From NCBI RefSeq assembly GCF_007833275.1, contig NZ_CP042241.1, positions 1,550,001 through 1,614,000 on the forward strand: a DNA stretch of 64,000 nucleotides, given 5' to 3'. Position numbers and translations under genes: made by a program. Source of the DNA: Salarchaeum sp. JOR-1. GTDB taxonomy: Archaea > Halobacteriota > Halobacteria > Halobacteriales > Halobacteriaceae. The number at the start of each line of letters is the position of its first letter. Positions within the stretch are counted from its first letter, which is position 1. Below, piece by piece: positions 5,971 through 10,441 of the stretch. The notes under the pieces are model-generated. The model was given only the letters and a program-made list of their open reading frames with translations, did no database searches and had not been told where the DNA came from.

Positions 5971-6654
5971 ATGGTTCGCTACCGCGACAGCGACCTCTCG
6001 TGGCTCGGGTACGCGACGATACGGCTCGCCGGCGACCGAACGGTCTACCTCGACCCCGGCCGGTACGGCGTGCTCGACGGCTACGACGCGCGGGACGGCG
6101 ACGTGGTCTGCGTCACCCACGACCACCACTACGATCCGGACGGCATCCGACGGGTCGCCGAGCCGGACGCGACAATCGTCGTCTACGAGGGCGTGGACGC
6201 CGCGAACATCGACCGGGACGTGACGCCCGTCGCCGACCTCGACTACGACGTGGTGCGCGTCGGCGAGGACGCGACCGTCACGGTGGACGGCGTGCGCGTG
6301 CGGTCGCTGCCCGTCTACAACCGGCCCGACGGCCCCCGCGACACCCACCCGCCAGGGTTCGGCGTCGGCTACCTCGTCACCGTGGGCGACGCGCGCGTGC
6401 TCTGGACGGGCGACTCGGACGCGCTCCCACACCACGACGACCTCGACGTCGACGTGCTCTGTCCGCCCGTCGGCGGGTCGTTCACGATGAACCGCGAGGA
6501 CGCCGCCGCGCTCGCCGAACGCATGAAACCCGACCTCGTCGTACCCGTCCACTACGACACGTTCGCCGCGCTCGAAACCGACGCGGACGCGTTCGTCACC
6601 GACGTGGCGCGACGCGGAATCGGCGTCGCGCTCAACGACTCTCGCGACCAGTAG
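5971..6654 (+). CDS. Metallo-beta-lactamase-fold hydrolase
   Basis: 227 residues with the metal-binding motif THDHHYD near residue 50, a WTGDSD segment and a late VPVHYDTF histidine. These are features of the UlaG-like/L-ascorbate-6-P-lactonase branch of the MBL fold. It is probably cytoplasmic and binds one or two metal ions; the substrate is unknown. It is the last ordinary core gene before the AT-richer island. Confidence 0.82.
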   Translation: MVRYRDSDLSWLGYATIRLAGDRTVYLDPGRYGVLDGYDARDGDVVCVTHDHHYDPDGIRRVAEPDATIVVYEGVDAANIDRDVTPVADLDYDVVRVGEDATVTVDGVRVRSLPVYNRPDGPRDTHPPGFGVGYLVTVGDARVLWTGDSDALPHHDDLDVDVLCPPVGGSFTMNREDAAALAERMKPDLVVPVHYDTFAALETDADAFVTDVARRGIGVALNDSRDQ

Positions 6655-6826
6655 ACGTCCGTTCGGCCCGCGTGCCCCTCACCCTTGACGGACGACTACG
6701 GTAGCTCGCCAGCAATAGCTGAGAATACGATTTATTCATCCAGAGTACCGACCGGAAGAGAACGGAAGATCTGCTAAGTGCAGAGAGTGAGTTCCACAAT
6801 AATGCAAGAGGCTGTTTTGCGTTAAC
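6655..6826. other. Left edge of the accessory island, no gene seen
   Basis: Base composition falls visibly toward AT after about 6710. No open frame with haloarchaeal codon usage is present. The segment from about 6750 to 6815 looks like neither flank and could be an old mobile-element scar, but I cannot assign it. Confidence 0.4.
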
Positions 6827-7050
6827 TCAGCTCACCGTGAAGTGGACACCAGAGTCAGCTGATACGTAGACGTGAAATTTACCACCTTCTGGAAGCGCTT
6901 CCTCTACGTAGTCAATTTCTAGGATATCTTCAATTTCTAAACCCGCACTCGGGATATGCACGTCACGGTCTTACTGCCGCTAGCGTCGGGGCTCTCACTT
7001 TTATCTGAGAACTCAGCTTTAATTCGGGATCTTGCACGCTCTCTAGACAT
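6827..7050 (-). pseudogene. Small gene apparently broken by a frameshift
   Basis: On the minus strand ATG 7050 opens MSRERARSRIKAEFSDK and runs to ...GSKTVT, then ends quickly at 6937 as CISRVRV. One base out of phase, the frame from about 6963 continues as HIPSAGLEIEDILEID, then YVEEALPEGGKFHVYVSAD and ends at TGA 6827-6829. Joined, the two parts make a plausible acidic protein of about 74 residues, consistent with loss of one base near 6961. No family is recognised. It lies downstream of the membrane gene at 7112-7501 on the same strand, so it may once have been a third gene of that cassette. Confidence 0.4.
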
Positions 7051-7111
7051 ACTCGTGGGAAGTTGTACAGGACTCTTTGGTTCATACAGCTCACTTCGCT
7101 CGACAAAGAAA

Positions 7112-7501
7112 TCAATTTTTTGATGGGTCCGACTCCGACAGGGTATCGCGGAGGACGAGGAGTGCCGTAAGCACGGTGACGACGAGAACTCCGATTGCTT
7201 CAGGAGTGTCGGGGACATAGTAGAGTACTACCAGATTCCCTACGATAACAATAGTAGTCAACGATAATAGGGCAAAATTGCTCTGTACGTCATTGAGCCG
7301 TCCGCGTTCCCGTGCCCAACTAATGGTCTGTATGCCGAATATGAGGGCCAACGCGAGAGCTCCGAAAGCGACTATCGATATACCGTCTCCGATCGATTCA
7401 CCCTCAATAACCTGTGCTAACTCCGGATAGATATAGACAAGAATCGCAACTGTGCTGAGAAGTGTTAGGATCGCCGAATTTTTATGCAATAATTTTTTCA
7501 T
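7112..7501 (-). CDS. Four-helix small membrane protein, possible immunity protein
   Basis: 129 residues. The N-terminus is MKKLLHKNS, followed by four predicted membrane helices: near ILTLLSTVAILVYIYPELA, IVAFGALALALIFGIQ, LLSLTTIVIVGNLVVLYYV and IGVLVVTVLTALLVL. A short charged tail ends SESDPSKN. It starts 63 bases after the stop of the Tat-exported halocin-like gene on the same strand and is probably co-transcribed. Small multi-helix proteins beside bacteriocin genes are often immunity factors; that role is inferred only from position and topology. Codon use is AT-richer than in the flanking core genes. Confidence 0.65.
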   Translation of the reverse strand: MKKLLHKNSAILTLLSTVAILVYIYPELAQVIEGESIGDGISIVAFGALALALIFGIQTISWARERGRLNDVQSNFALLSLTTIVIVGNLVVLYYVPDTPEAIGVLVVTVLTALLVLRDTLSESDPSKN

Positions 7502-7564
7502 TAAACTATGTCCTACGTGCAGTCATATATATTTTTCTAAAGATACAGTCACGTAGAGTGTGGC

Positions 7565-8332
7565 TTACTGCGGCTCTACCGTTGGTAAGACGTACGTAGG
7601 GTTGACAGGGCTGTATCCAGTTTCGATCTTCACACCACAGCCATTGTTCTCCAGCATAATCCAGGTCCATTCGGCCGCCATTGCAACCGTAATTGCTACG
7701 ACAGCAGAGGCGGAAAGTGCTCCGGCGGCCAGAATTCCTCGGCTGACGAGGAGCCTTTTCAGATGCGGTCCAGTCACGCCTCCACCGAAAGCAAGAGCAC
7801 TGACATCGTTGATGAAACCGTCGCTCAGGTAAAAGTCCACCCAATACTCACCAGGTACGATAGTACCGGGGTCTGTGATGACCATATCCTGCCGGTTACA
7901 CGAAGTTGCGGATATGGATATCCCCCTATTGTCGGGTTTAGCGGAGGGAGCTGTCTTCTCACTGGATAAGAGCACGTACTGGCTGGCCCTATCGACCATC
8001 GACTTTGCCTGTCCACCCCTCATACTATCCTCAGAAGCGGCCAGCTGGCTGGCAGTCTTCACGAGACGAAGACGCCCTGCTTCGATTTCTTTGTTGAACT
8101 TTTCAATTCCCTCGCGATACATTTGGTACTCCGATTCACCAATCTCCTCTGCAGTAGTATTAAGAACAAATCGGTCGTTCTCAACCGCGATCCAGTTAGC
8201 CGCTGTCCCCGCCTGATTAGATCCTCCTTTTTCTGCGGCTGCAAGCCCGCTACCACCAATAGCGACGGCTAGTCCTGCGCCTATACCTCGTAGTACGTTT
8301 CTTCGCGTTGGGATGTTATCTTCTGACATCAT
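7565..8332 (-). CDS. Tat-exported halocin-like (bacteriocin-like) precursor
   Basis: 255 residues. It has a twin-arginine signal (PTRRNVLRGIGAG, hydrophobic stretch, likely cleavage after AAA near residue 34). A middle region contains IGESEYQMYREGIEKFN. The C-terminal domain of about 90 residues begins GEYWVDFYLSDGFINDV, continues through a Gly-rich stretch and an Ala/Val-rich hydrophobic helix, and closes with NNGCGVKIETGY. The pattern (aromatic-xLS segment, Gly/Ala helix, NGxGVxI) resembles C-terminal domains of some secreted bacteriocin-like peptides as I remember them; this is analogy, not a database hit. Mature Cys are few, unlike halocin C8. Two adjacent ATGs (8332, 8329) are possible; TATA spacing slightly favours 8329. 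It is followed by a candidate immunity gene. Confidence 0.55.
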   Translation of the reverse strand: MMSEDNIPTRRNVLRGIGAGLAVAIGGSGLAAAEKGGSNQAGTAANWIAVENDRFVLNTTAEEIGESEYQMYREGIEKFNKEIEAGRLRLVKTASQLAASEDSMRGGQAKSMVDRASQYVLLSSEKTAPSAKPDNRGISISATSCNRQDMVITDPGTIVPGEYWVDFYLSDGFINDVSALAFGGGVTGPHLKRLLVSRGILAAGALSASAVVAITVAMAAEWTWIMLENNGCGVKIETGYSPVNPTYVLPTVEPQ

Positions 8333-8352
8333 CTATGAAATTCAACCACCTA

Positions 8353-8360
8353 ATTATAAA
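8353..8360 (-). promoter_or_regulatory. TATA element of the halocin-like gene
   Basis: On the minus strand TTTATAAT is centred about 24-27 bases upstream of the tandem ATGs at 8332/8329, so the mRNA should be leaderless. Confidence 0.55.
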
Positions 8361-8494
8361 TCCCTCTATATGAATTTTTTACTTACTATCTCTAAAGTTT
8401 GCTAATTTACTTCAAGCAGGATACGGCTACATCAGGTAACTGCGTGGCTGCAGGAGTATCGGAGAGCATTCCATGAGTTCACTGTATCTACCGA

Positions 8495-9035
8495 TTAGAG
8501 TGATCGGTCGAGATTGTGAGTGAGGCAGGCGATAGTGAGCTCTCGAAACTGTTTCCACCAGTGCCGTGATCGGACAAACGCACCACACTTGCGTTTGAGC
8601 CGAGAGTTAATCGTCTCATTCTGACTACGCTGGCCATAGAGATCACCATCCAGTCGAGCATTCCACGCCTTGTGGAGCGATGAAAACTCTCTGGGTTTGC
8701 TGAGTGAGCGAACGTCCGAATTACGAGCTAATGCACGTATTTTCTGGTCGTCGTATCCCTTGTCGCCAAGCAGAATCGCTACTTTGCTGGTATTCCGCTT
8801 GATGAGCGATGGCGCAATCTTGGAGTCGTGTTTTCGTGTCTACGAGAAGTGTGATCTTCAACTGCCGAATCGTTAGCTTCGTCCGCTTCGTGTAGTGCTT
8901 CGAGGCGTAGCGAGCGACAGCTCGTCCAGCCAAGTGATACGTCTGCTCAACAAACCGGAGCAACCGCGACTTCGAGAGGGCCTGCATCCGGTTAACGTAC
9001 TGTTCGATCCTGCAACTCCCTGAAAATTTCAACAA
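8495..9035 (-). pseudogene. Decayed IS5/IS4-type transposase remnant
   Basis: Reading the minus strand, the first part contains ALSKSRLLRFVEQTYHLA, then jumps to ASKHYTKRTKLTIRQLK and LLVDTK, which in related haloarchaeal transposases are separated by roughly 100 residues. After LLVDTK near 8832 the frame changes and continues DSKIAPSLIKRNTSK, LLGDKGYDDQK and YGQRSQNETINSRLKRK to a TAA at 8495-8497. The last segment carries the YREK signature exactly (Y-2-R-3-E-6-K). The outer left end reads GGCTTTGTTGAAAT from 9039, which looks like a terminal repeat; I found no matching right end. The element has at least one internal deletion and one frameshift and is dead. Confidence 0.75.
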
Positions 9036-9039
9036 AGCC

Positions 9040-9237
9040 GACTATTTCTAAACCGAGCCGGCCAATTTGTACATGGACCTACCGTCGTATTCACACAGCG
9101 TTTCAATCGAAAAACCACGAGGGTAGCGTCCGAGGACCGAGCGGCCCGTAGGGTTCGGTGGGTCGCCGGTTCACTCGCCGTAGGCGAGGCCGACGACTGA
9201 GGGGAGCGAACGTAGTGAGCGAACCGAAGGAGGAGTG
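9040..9237. other. Non-coding stretch between IS remnant and 3' element
   Basis: No supported gene. It contains a small stem CTCGCC-GTA-GGCGAG (9175-9189) and a direct repeat GAGCGAAC (about 9204 and 9217). GC content rises again here, marking the right edge of the island. Confidence 0.4.
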
Positions 9238-9337
9238 CTTTTATCGCCAGAAAGCAGAGCTTTCTGGCTGAACGGCGGGAAATCGAAGATTTCCCGCAGT
9301 AGTGCAGGTTTTACAGAGCGCGGCCGGAGGCCGCGCC
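9238..9337 (-). repeat. Three-hairpin 3' element, copy B (after top6A)
   Basis: Read in the sense of top6A, whose stop lies at 9350, the stems come in order at 9336-9318 (8 bp, loop TCC), 9297-9275 (10 bp, loop TTC) and 9267-9247 (9 bp, loop TCT), with TAAAACCTGCA between the first and second. The plus-strand context CTTTTATCGCCAGAA...TTCTGGCTG is shared with copy C, while the stem bases differ in a paired manner. Confidence 0.65.
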
Positions 9338-9349
9338 CAGCAAAACGTG

Positions 9350-10441
9350 CTAGATGACGCCCATCGTGTTCAGGCGCTCGGGGAGGTAGGTGTCGGTGAC
9401 GAAGTCCAGGCCGCGGGAGGCGAGCGCCTGCTGTTCGGCCTTCTTGTCGATGTCGAGCTGGAGTTCGATCTGTTCGGTCCAGTACTCCGTCTGGAATCGG
9501 GGGTCTTCGAGCTCGCTCTCCAGGGCGTTCACGTCCGAGTCGCTGAGCGGGTCGGTCGGGAGGTCGTACTCCACGATGTCCTCGGGGCGGATGCCGACGA
9601 ACTGCGCGTCCGGCGTCGCGAGGTACTCGGAGAGGTGCGCGGACTTGATGGATCCATATGCTACAGACCCGAAGATGCGGTAACTCCAGGGGTCGCCGTC
9701 AGTGAACACCACGACGGGGAGGTCGAGTTCGTCGTGCAGGCGCTTCGTGAGCCGGCGGGTCGCGCGCGCCGGCTGGCCGCCGAGGTGGACGACGAGCGCG
9801 TCGTACTCGTCGTCGAACCCGTTCTCCACGAGGCGGTCGCGCATCCCGCCGGTCTCCACGCACAGCACGAACTCGGCGTCGTTGTCGAGGAACTCGATGG
9901 TGTCCGGGTCGTTCGGAATCTGGTAGCCGCCCTGGCCCACGTCCTCCTGACAGTGGATGTCGCGGTCGCCCCGCCGGGTCTGCTCGCGGAGGCGGAGCGG
10001 ACCCATCACCTTCGCGCCGGACTCCTCCGGCCGCATGTGGAAGTCCTCGCGCTTCACGCCCGAAACGATTTCGAGGTCTTCGACGAGCTTGTTCGACTCC
10101 GACTGCGTGCTGAACTGCGCCTCCTCTTCGTCCCAGGACTCGCTGAGGTAGTAGAGTTCACGCAGCGTCGACGACCGGTTCTCCTCTAGCTGCTGGGCGA
10201 GGAACTCCATCGTGTACACCGCTTTGAGGAGTTTCCGCGCGCCCCGCACGCTGTTCGCGCTGCGCGTGCTCGTGCGGTCGCCGTACACCCAGACGCCGGC
10301 GTCCTCGTCGAACACGATGTTCGACTTCGAGCGCGTCGGCACGTCCATGTGGGGGATGTCGCCGTCCGCGAACTGGTCGTAGAACTCCGCCGCCATGTCG
10401 ATGAGGCGCTCTCGCGCCTTCGCGTCAGTGATGTCGCTCAT
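9350..10441 (-). CDS. top6A: DNA topoisomerase VI subunit A
   Basis: Catalytic subunit of the type IIB topoisomerase (Spo11/TopVI-A), 363 residues. The cleavage tyrosine lies in [13 protein letters not shown] (Tyr97/Tyr98; family comparison favours the second). A Toprim domain follows: the glutamate of [10 protein letters not shown] near residue 190 and [16 protein letters not shown] near 245 with metal-binding acids. It pairs with TopVI-B to pass DNA duplexes and relax or decatenate DNA. Its ATG overlaps the top6B stop (ATGA), so the two subunits are translationally coupled. Copy B of the hairpin element follows the stop. Confidence 0.95.

What the first reader, a model, noticed from the sequence alone, without database searches (positions are those of the whole stretch)
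7112..8332. Candidate halocin plus immunity cassette in an AT-rich island
A Tat-exported precursor (PTRRNVLRG signal) ends in a hydrophobic domain of about 90 residues patterned as aromatic-xLS, Gly/Ala helix, NGCGVKI. It is followed 63 bases later by a four-helix membrane protein, the layout expected of a halocin and its immunity protein. It does not match halocin C8 (too few Cys). The family analogy is from memory.
Basis: partly seen in the sequence, partly recalled or inferred. Interest (0 to 1): 0.7.

Follow-up and report, generated by a model that had tools for sequence, protein, structure and literature searches.

The report
Haloarchaeal secreted toxin with membrane immunity partner
A salt-loving archaeon carries, on a small foreign DNA island, a gene for an exported protein whose end looks like a membrane-attacking peptide, beside a gene for a small membrane protein that probably protects the producer; about 40 related genes in other salt-loving archaea show this is a widespread, apparently undescribed family of probable archaeal antibiotics.

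Summary
A 255-aa Tat-signal precursor (7565-8332, minus strand) is followed after 63 bases by a 129-aa four-helix membrane protein (7112-7501), in a 2.7-kb AT-rich island. A sister species has the two flanking genes about 20 bases apart. Neither protein meaningfully matches Pfam, NCBIfam, PHROGs, PADLOC or the PDB. Profile searches found about 40 related loci in roughly 30 of 392 haloarchaeal genomes. They share a Tat signal, a small conserved N-domain and a C-domain of Gly/Ala-rich hydrophobic helices ending in N-x-G-C-G-V-x-I and a terminal Gln. Its two cysteines are present or absent together, pointing to a disulfide. Most loci have a small membrane gene beside them. Several unrelated partner families track the toxin clades, in changing order and orientation, and orphan copies of the four-helix partner survive where no toxin is found. 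In some genomes the precursor is split into two genes just before the first cysteine. Best reading: an exported halocin-like membrane-active toxin with membrane-protein immunity. It is not a halocin C8 member. No activity has been shown; killing is inferred from genomics alone, and both AlphaFold models were poor. Judged a new variant of a known kind.

The parts
7565..8332 (-). Tat-exported precursor of the presumed toxin, 255 aa
   Evidence: ORF; homologues in several haloarchaeal genera
8234..8332 (-). Twin-arginine signal peptide, residues 1-33 (PTRRNVLRG ... LAAAE)
   Evidence: read from the sequence; RR conserved in the family alignment
8048..8197 (-). Conserved N-terminal domain, about residues 46-95 (DG...FNxAIExG)
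   Evidence: alignment; N-domain profile hits lie at toxin loci
7568..7921 (-). C-terminal (presumed mature toxin) domain, residues 138-255, with Cys145 and Cys232, helices, NNGCGVKI, terminal Gln
   Evidence: alignments; split-gene homologues begin at the first Cys
7898..7900 (-). Cys145, first of the co-varying pair
7637..7639 (-). Cys232 in NNGCGVKI, second of the pair
7112..7501 (-). Four-helix membrane protein, 129 aa, presumed immunity protein
   Evidence: ORF and hydropathy; homologues beside related precursors
7502..7564 (-). 63-nt spacer between the two genes
8351..8360 (-). TATA-like element (TTTATAATTA) about 24 nt before the start codon, compatible with a leaderless haloarchaeal transcript
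   Evidence: read by eye from the sequence; not tested
8482..9041 (.). Deleted IS5-family transposase remnant in the same island
   Evidence: DNA matches to annotated IS5 transposases; partial second copy in the genome
6634..9351 (.). AT-rich island between a metallo-beta-lactamase-fold hydrolase gene and the TopVI-A-like gene; absent from sister species G117

Best explanation
The pair is an exported halocin-like toxin and its dedicated immunity gene. Shown by sequence: a Tat signal, a small N-domain and a C-domain with hydrophobic helix-like segments and two co-varying Cys, linked to a four-helix membrane gene. Inferred: the precursor is exported by the Tat route. The N-domain keeps the hydrophobic C-domain soluble and inactive. 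Cleavage near residue 140 releases a peptide of about 110 residues closed by a Cys145-Cys232 disulfide. The peptide enters the membrane of related haloarchaea and breaks its barrier. The four-helix protein sits in the producer's membrane and blocks this.
For: About 40 related loci in about 30 of 392 genomes, patchy across families. Membrane gene beside most of them. The four-helix partner family is adjacent to a toxin or remnant in 7 of the 12 genomes where it is found, and intact without one in G383 and G197. A three-helix partner family accompanies related toxins in three orientations (L106, L107, L108) and a six-helix family in two gene orders. Partner labels follow the toxin tree: 16 changes, the minimum, against 21.9 shuffled, 0 of 200 as low. 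Both Cys present or both absent in 30 of 30 rows, counting DHC as the alternative second Cys. In L095, L096 and L098/L099 the gene is split by a Shine-Dalgarno-TAATG junction right before the first Cys. The N-domain was not found as an orphan while the membrane partner was. Island insertion. Halocin C8-like precursors in Halobacterium sp. GN101 and Haloferax larsenii are also followed by a small membrane gene.
Against: No activity, processing or immunity data. No known toxin family matches by profile. L116 lacks a nearby membrane gene and L123 has one only about 1.1 kb away. Several two-helix partners (L098/L099, L101, L104, L105, L130) rest on hydropathy alone without homologues at unrelated loci. 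The background rate of a nearby membrane ORF is not negligible: 14 of 112 control ORFs against 18 of 38 toxins within 150 nt. AlphaFold models have mean pLDDT 37. The mature domain is net negative (-5), unlike most cationic antimicrobial peptides.
Confidence: 0.72

Rival explanations
1. Halocin C8-like single-gene design: the N-terminal part of the precursor is itself the immunity protein, and the membrane gene is an exporter, processing factor or accessory.
For: ProC8 matures into HalI (immunity) and halocin C8 from one Tat-exported precursor (PMC11509114), and the architecture here is alike. Two halocin C8-like precursors also have a downstream membrane gene.
Against: The N-domain does not match Hac8_like_N and was found only at toxin loci, never alone. 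The membrane gene is found alone in G383 and G197 and its family changes with the toxin clade, as expected of immunity genes.
Confidence: 0.12
2. A two-protein membrane complex of the same cell (exported subunit plus membrane subunit, for example envelope sensing or signalling), with no role in killing.
For: Linkage and a hydrophobic segment in the exported protein are also compatible with a complex.
Against: Patchy occurrence, island location, decayed copies (L063, L125, L126) and several unrelated partner families for one exported fold fit conflict genes better than housekeeping.
Confidence: 0.12
3. A selfish toxin-antitoxin (addiction) pair acting in the producer, the membrane protein being the antitoxin.
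For: Small two-gene cassette on a mobile-looking island; remnants of both genes together in G055.
Against: The conserved Tat signal and co-varying Cys point to action outside the cell.
Confidence: 0.04

Closest known systems
Halocin C8 family (TIGR04449 halocin_C8_dom with PF22862 Hac8_like_N)
   Same: Tat-exported precursor, N-domain followed by a hydrophobic C-terminal module with a GCG motif; haloarchaeal; a small membrane gene follows directly in two of the three loci inspected
   Different: Neither domain matches; 2 instead of 10 Cys; hhalign of the C-domains gives probability 0.4%
Geobacillin 26 / alicyclobacillin 24 (NF035925, class III bacteriocins)
   Same: Secreted protein of about 240 aa with a helical core and a C-terminal hydrophobic helix; membrane-associated killing reported (PMC13176240)
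   Different: Sec signal, bacterial; the family's best score at any member of our family is far below the cut-off, and similar scores occur elsewhere in the same genomes and in control genomes
SdpC/SdpI of Bacillus subtilis (from general knowledge)
   Same: Secreted precursor releasing a hydrophobic disulfide peptide, with a multi-helix membrane immunity protein
   Different: No NCBIfam or Pfam match at E up to 1; different length, export route and immunity family
HmHapP (HFX_0892) protease-activated precursor of Haloferax mediterranei (PMC12893001)
   Same: Haloarchaeal secreted precursor activated by an extracellular protease
   Different: There the active fragment is the N-terminal 45 residues; sequence relation not tested

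Membership tests
Halocin C8 family | Halocin C8-like domain (TIGR04449) | tested here: not met
   No match at E up to 1, while L060 matches at 8.7e-13; hhalign probability 0.4%
Halocin C8 family | Hac8_like_N domain (PF22862) | tested here: not met
   No match for the window; L060 matches at 8.1e-51
Halocin C8 family | Ten Cys in the mature peptide | tested here: not met
   Two Cys
Halocins in the broad sense | Haloarchaeal exported precursor protein or peptide | tested here: met
   Twin-arginine signal conserved in homologues; all members found are haloarchaeal. Export itself was not measured
Halocins in the broad sense | Secreted product inhibits other haloarchaea | not testable with these tools
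   needs culture assays
Toxin-immunity gene pair | Cognate partner gene linked and co-inherited | tested here: met
Toxin-immunity gene pair | Orphan immunity genes in genomes without a detected toxin | tested here: met
   G383 and G197
Toxin-immunity gene pair | Partner protects against the toxin | not testable with these tools
   needs expression tests
Geobacillin 26 family (NF035925) | Score above curated cut-off of 40 bits | tested here: not met
   12.9-13.3 bits for the best member of our family, equal to background
SdpC family | Match to a curated SdpC model | tested here: not met
   No such NCBIfam or Pfam match at E up to 1

The most novel reading that the evidence does not exclude
An undescribed haloarchaeal exotoxin family with a common pro-domain and a disulfide-closed hydrophobic C-domain, protected by many unrelated families of membrane immunity proteins. 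In the split-gene members the toxin chain has no signal of its own and would leave the cell through the Tat pore by riding on the separately made, signal-bearing pro-domain.
Probability: 0.35. Interest if true: 0.75.

Novelty: new variant of a known kind. Interest (0 to 1): 0.58.

Why it matters
Few halocins are known at sequence level. This family gives about 40 loci for testing archaeal toxin-immunity biology, including named strains (Natrinema mahii, Halomicrobium katesii, Natrinema versiforme). The split-gene members make a specific question testable: whether a hydrophobic toxin can be co-exported through the Tat pore by a separate chaperone-like partner. The paired Cys losses, some to His, would let a disulfide be tested against other ways of closing the fold.

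Tried and rejected
Family libraries and PDB: no significant relative; the FosX hit at E 0.00028 scores 21 bits against a cut-off of 270 and was set aside. Halocin C8 membership: rejected. Geobacillin 26: weak hit not above background. AlphaFold of the C-domain and of the whole precursor: pLDDT 37, so no fold search was made. Viral contigs: nothing. Plasmid records: nothing with the window protein or one other member; one Natrinema record with each of two divergent members. Programmed frameshift in the split genes: set aside because all three junctions have a Shine-Dalgarno-like sequence and a TAATG overlap. N-domain with other toxin modules (polymorphic design): not found; N-domain hits coincide with C-domain loci, apart from a truncated one and a weak last hit. 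L127, L129 and L131 were treated as chance hits and excluded. Makarova et al. 2019 on archaeal toxins, recalled from memory, is not in the library, so prior mention of this family there could not be checked.

Full report
What is there. On the minus strand, 7565-8332 encodes a 255-residue protein with a twin-arginine signal, and 63 bases downstream 7112-7501 encodes a 129-residue protein with four hydrophobic segments. The precursor has two Cys, at 145 and 232. The pair lies in an AT-rich stretch (GC3 about 0.5, against 0.93 in the flanking genes). In a sister species of the same genus the flanking hydrolase and TopVI-A-like genes lie about 20 bases apart, so 6634-9351 is an inserted or lost island. 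The island also holds a deleted IS5-family transposase. The TopVI-A name is my reading of the protein sequence; the hydrolase is a Pfam match.

Relatives. Neither protein has a meaningful match in Pfam, NCBIfam, PHROGs, PADLOC or PDB sequences. A search of 392 genomes of the order with the precursor gave true homologues in several genera. Profiles built from these reached about 40 loci in about 30 genomes. A scan of 84,980 species genomes for one tight motif found Halostagnicola sp. A56, Natrinema mahii H13 and Halomicrobium katesii; this scan is not sensitive to divergent members. No viral contig matched.

Anatomy. The full-length members share a Tat signal, an N-domain with the pattern DG...N-x-A-x-x-G and a C-domain. 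The C-domain starts at C-[GN]-x-[ND], runs through a D-D-x stretch and two Gly/Ala-rich hydrophobic helix-like segments, and ends in N-x-G-C-G-[VI]-x-I and nearly always a Gln close to the C-terminus. The first Cys and its partner (GCG, or DHC in one subfamily) are both present in 25 rows and both absent in 5, with none mixed. Three of the five losses are His/His, one Ser/His, one Ala/Ser. The tree gives five changes, though only one independent pair lies on strongly supported branches, and DHC was accepted as an alternative after looking. A disulfide is the simplest reading.

Split genes. In L095 (first seen as L005), L096 (L006) and L098/L099 (L008) the N-part ends in TAA overlapping the ATG of the C-part (TAATG), with GGAGG-type Shine-Dalgarno sequences just upstream. 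The C-part begins MPCNKND, MCNRDD or MGCNEDK. This places the boundary of the functional module at the first Cys and suggests that the toxin chain may be made without its own signal. These forms are close relatives of each other, so this may be one event. L096 also has an in-frame stop and is probably decayed. In L092 the two halves lie in different frames at a run of six G, which may be a mutation or a sequencing error. In L063 the N-part and partner are degraded.

Partner genes. Most members have a small membrane gene within about 500 bases. Homology-supported groups are: four-helix (window, L092, L095, L096, L097, divergent L125, remnant L126), three-helix (L106, L107, L108), six-helix (L109-L113, L117, L118), a second four-helix group (L114, L121) and two-helix groups (L119/L120/L194; L122/L128; L093/L094, the last near-identical). 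The three-helix family lies downstream on the same strand, downstream on the opposite strand and upstream on the opposite strand of three related toxins. The six-helix family lies downstream in six cases and upstream in one. Partner labels sit on the toxin tree with the fewest possible changes, 16 against 21.9 when shuffled. Several further two-helix partners have no homologue at another kind of locus and could be chance ORFs. A rough control found a membrane ORF starting within 150 nt after 14 of 112 other ORFs, against 18 of 38 toxins. The four-helix family occurs in 12 genomes. In seven it is next to a toxin or remnant. In G383 and G197 it is intact and no toxin was found; in the remaining three genomes it is degraded.

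Mechanism. The most likely mechanism is export by Tat, proteolytic release of the C-domain, membrane attack on relatives and protection by the membrane partner. Linkage, architecture and covariation are shown; export, cleavage, killing and immunity are inferred. Halocin C8, from one Tat-exported precursor that yields HalI and the peptide (PMC11509114), is the best functional precedent. The membrane gene rather than the N-domain is the better immunity candidate, because it is found as an orphan and changes family with the toxin, while the N-domain occurs only with the C-domain.

Comparison. Membership in the halocin C8 family was tested and not met. The reference peptide used to find halocin C8-like genes was recalled from memory and checked only by its matches to records annotated as halocin C8-like. 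Two halocin C8-like precursors (L060, L061) are also followed by a 68-residue membrane gene. Geobacillin 26 shows a similar layout but no sequence relation beyond background.

Verdict. The cassette is a probable halocin-like toxin and immunity pair of an apparently undescribed haloarchaeal family; confidence 0.72. Activity is untested, and an earlier description in literature I could not read is possible.

Noticed in passing
L060 2804-3010, L061 2799-3005: Halocin C8-like precursors of Halobacterium sp. GN101 and Haloferax larsenii plasmids are followed within 25 nt by a 68-residue small membrane gene, although halocin C8 immunity is described as residing in the precursor itself.
   Followed up: partly
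L125 (G003) between about 2505 and 4306 on the minus strand: A TnpB-like (IS200/IS605-type) gene, named by eye from its protein sequence, interrupts a member of the family between its two halves.
   Followed up: partly
L126 (G055) about 2563-2800 and L005/L095 (G150): Remnants of toxin and partner lie together beside the same phosphoribosyltransferase-like gene that flanks the pair in G150: a decayed cassette at a shared site.
   Followed up: partly
L017 1462-2139: A separate Tat-signal precursor ends in a Cys-rich tail (CSGFRWCTTCVACC...CC), possibly another microhalocin-like peptide.
   Followed up: no
window 8482-9041 and G000:C1:110450-110681: Deleted IS5-family transposase in the island; a second partial copy (80% identity) lies on the other contig.
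   Followed up: partly
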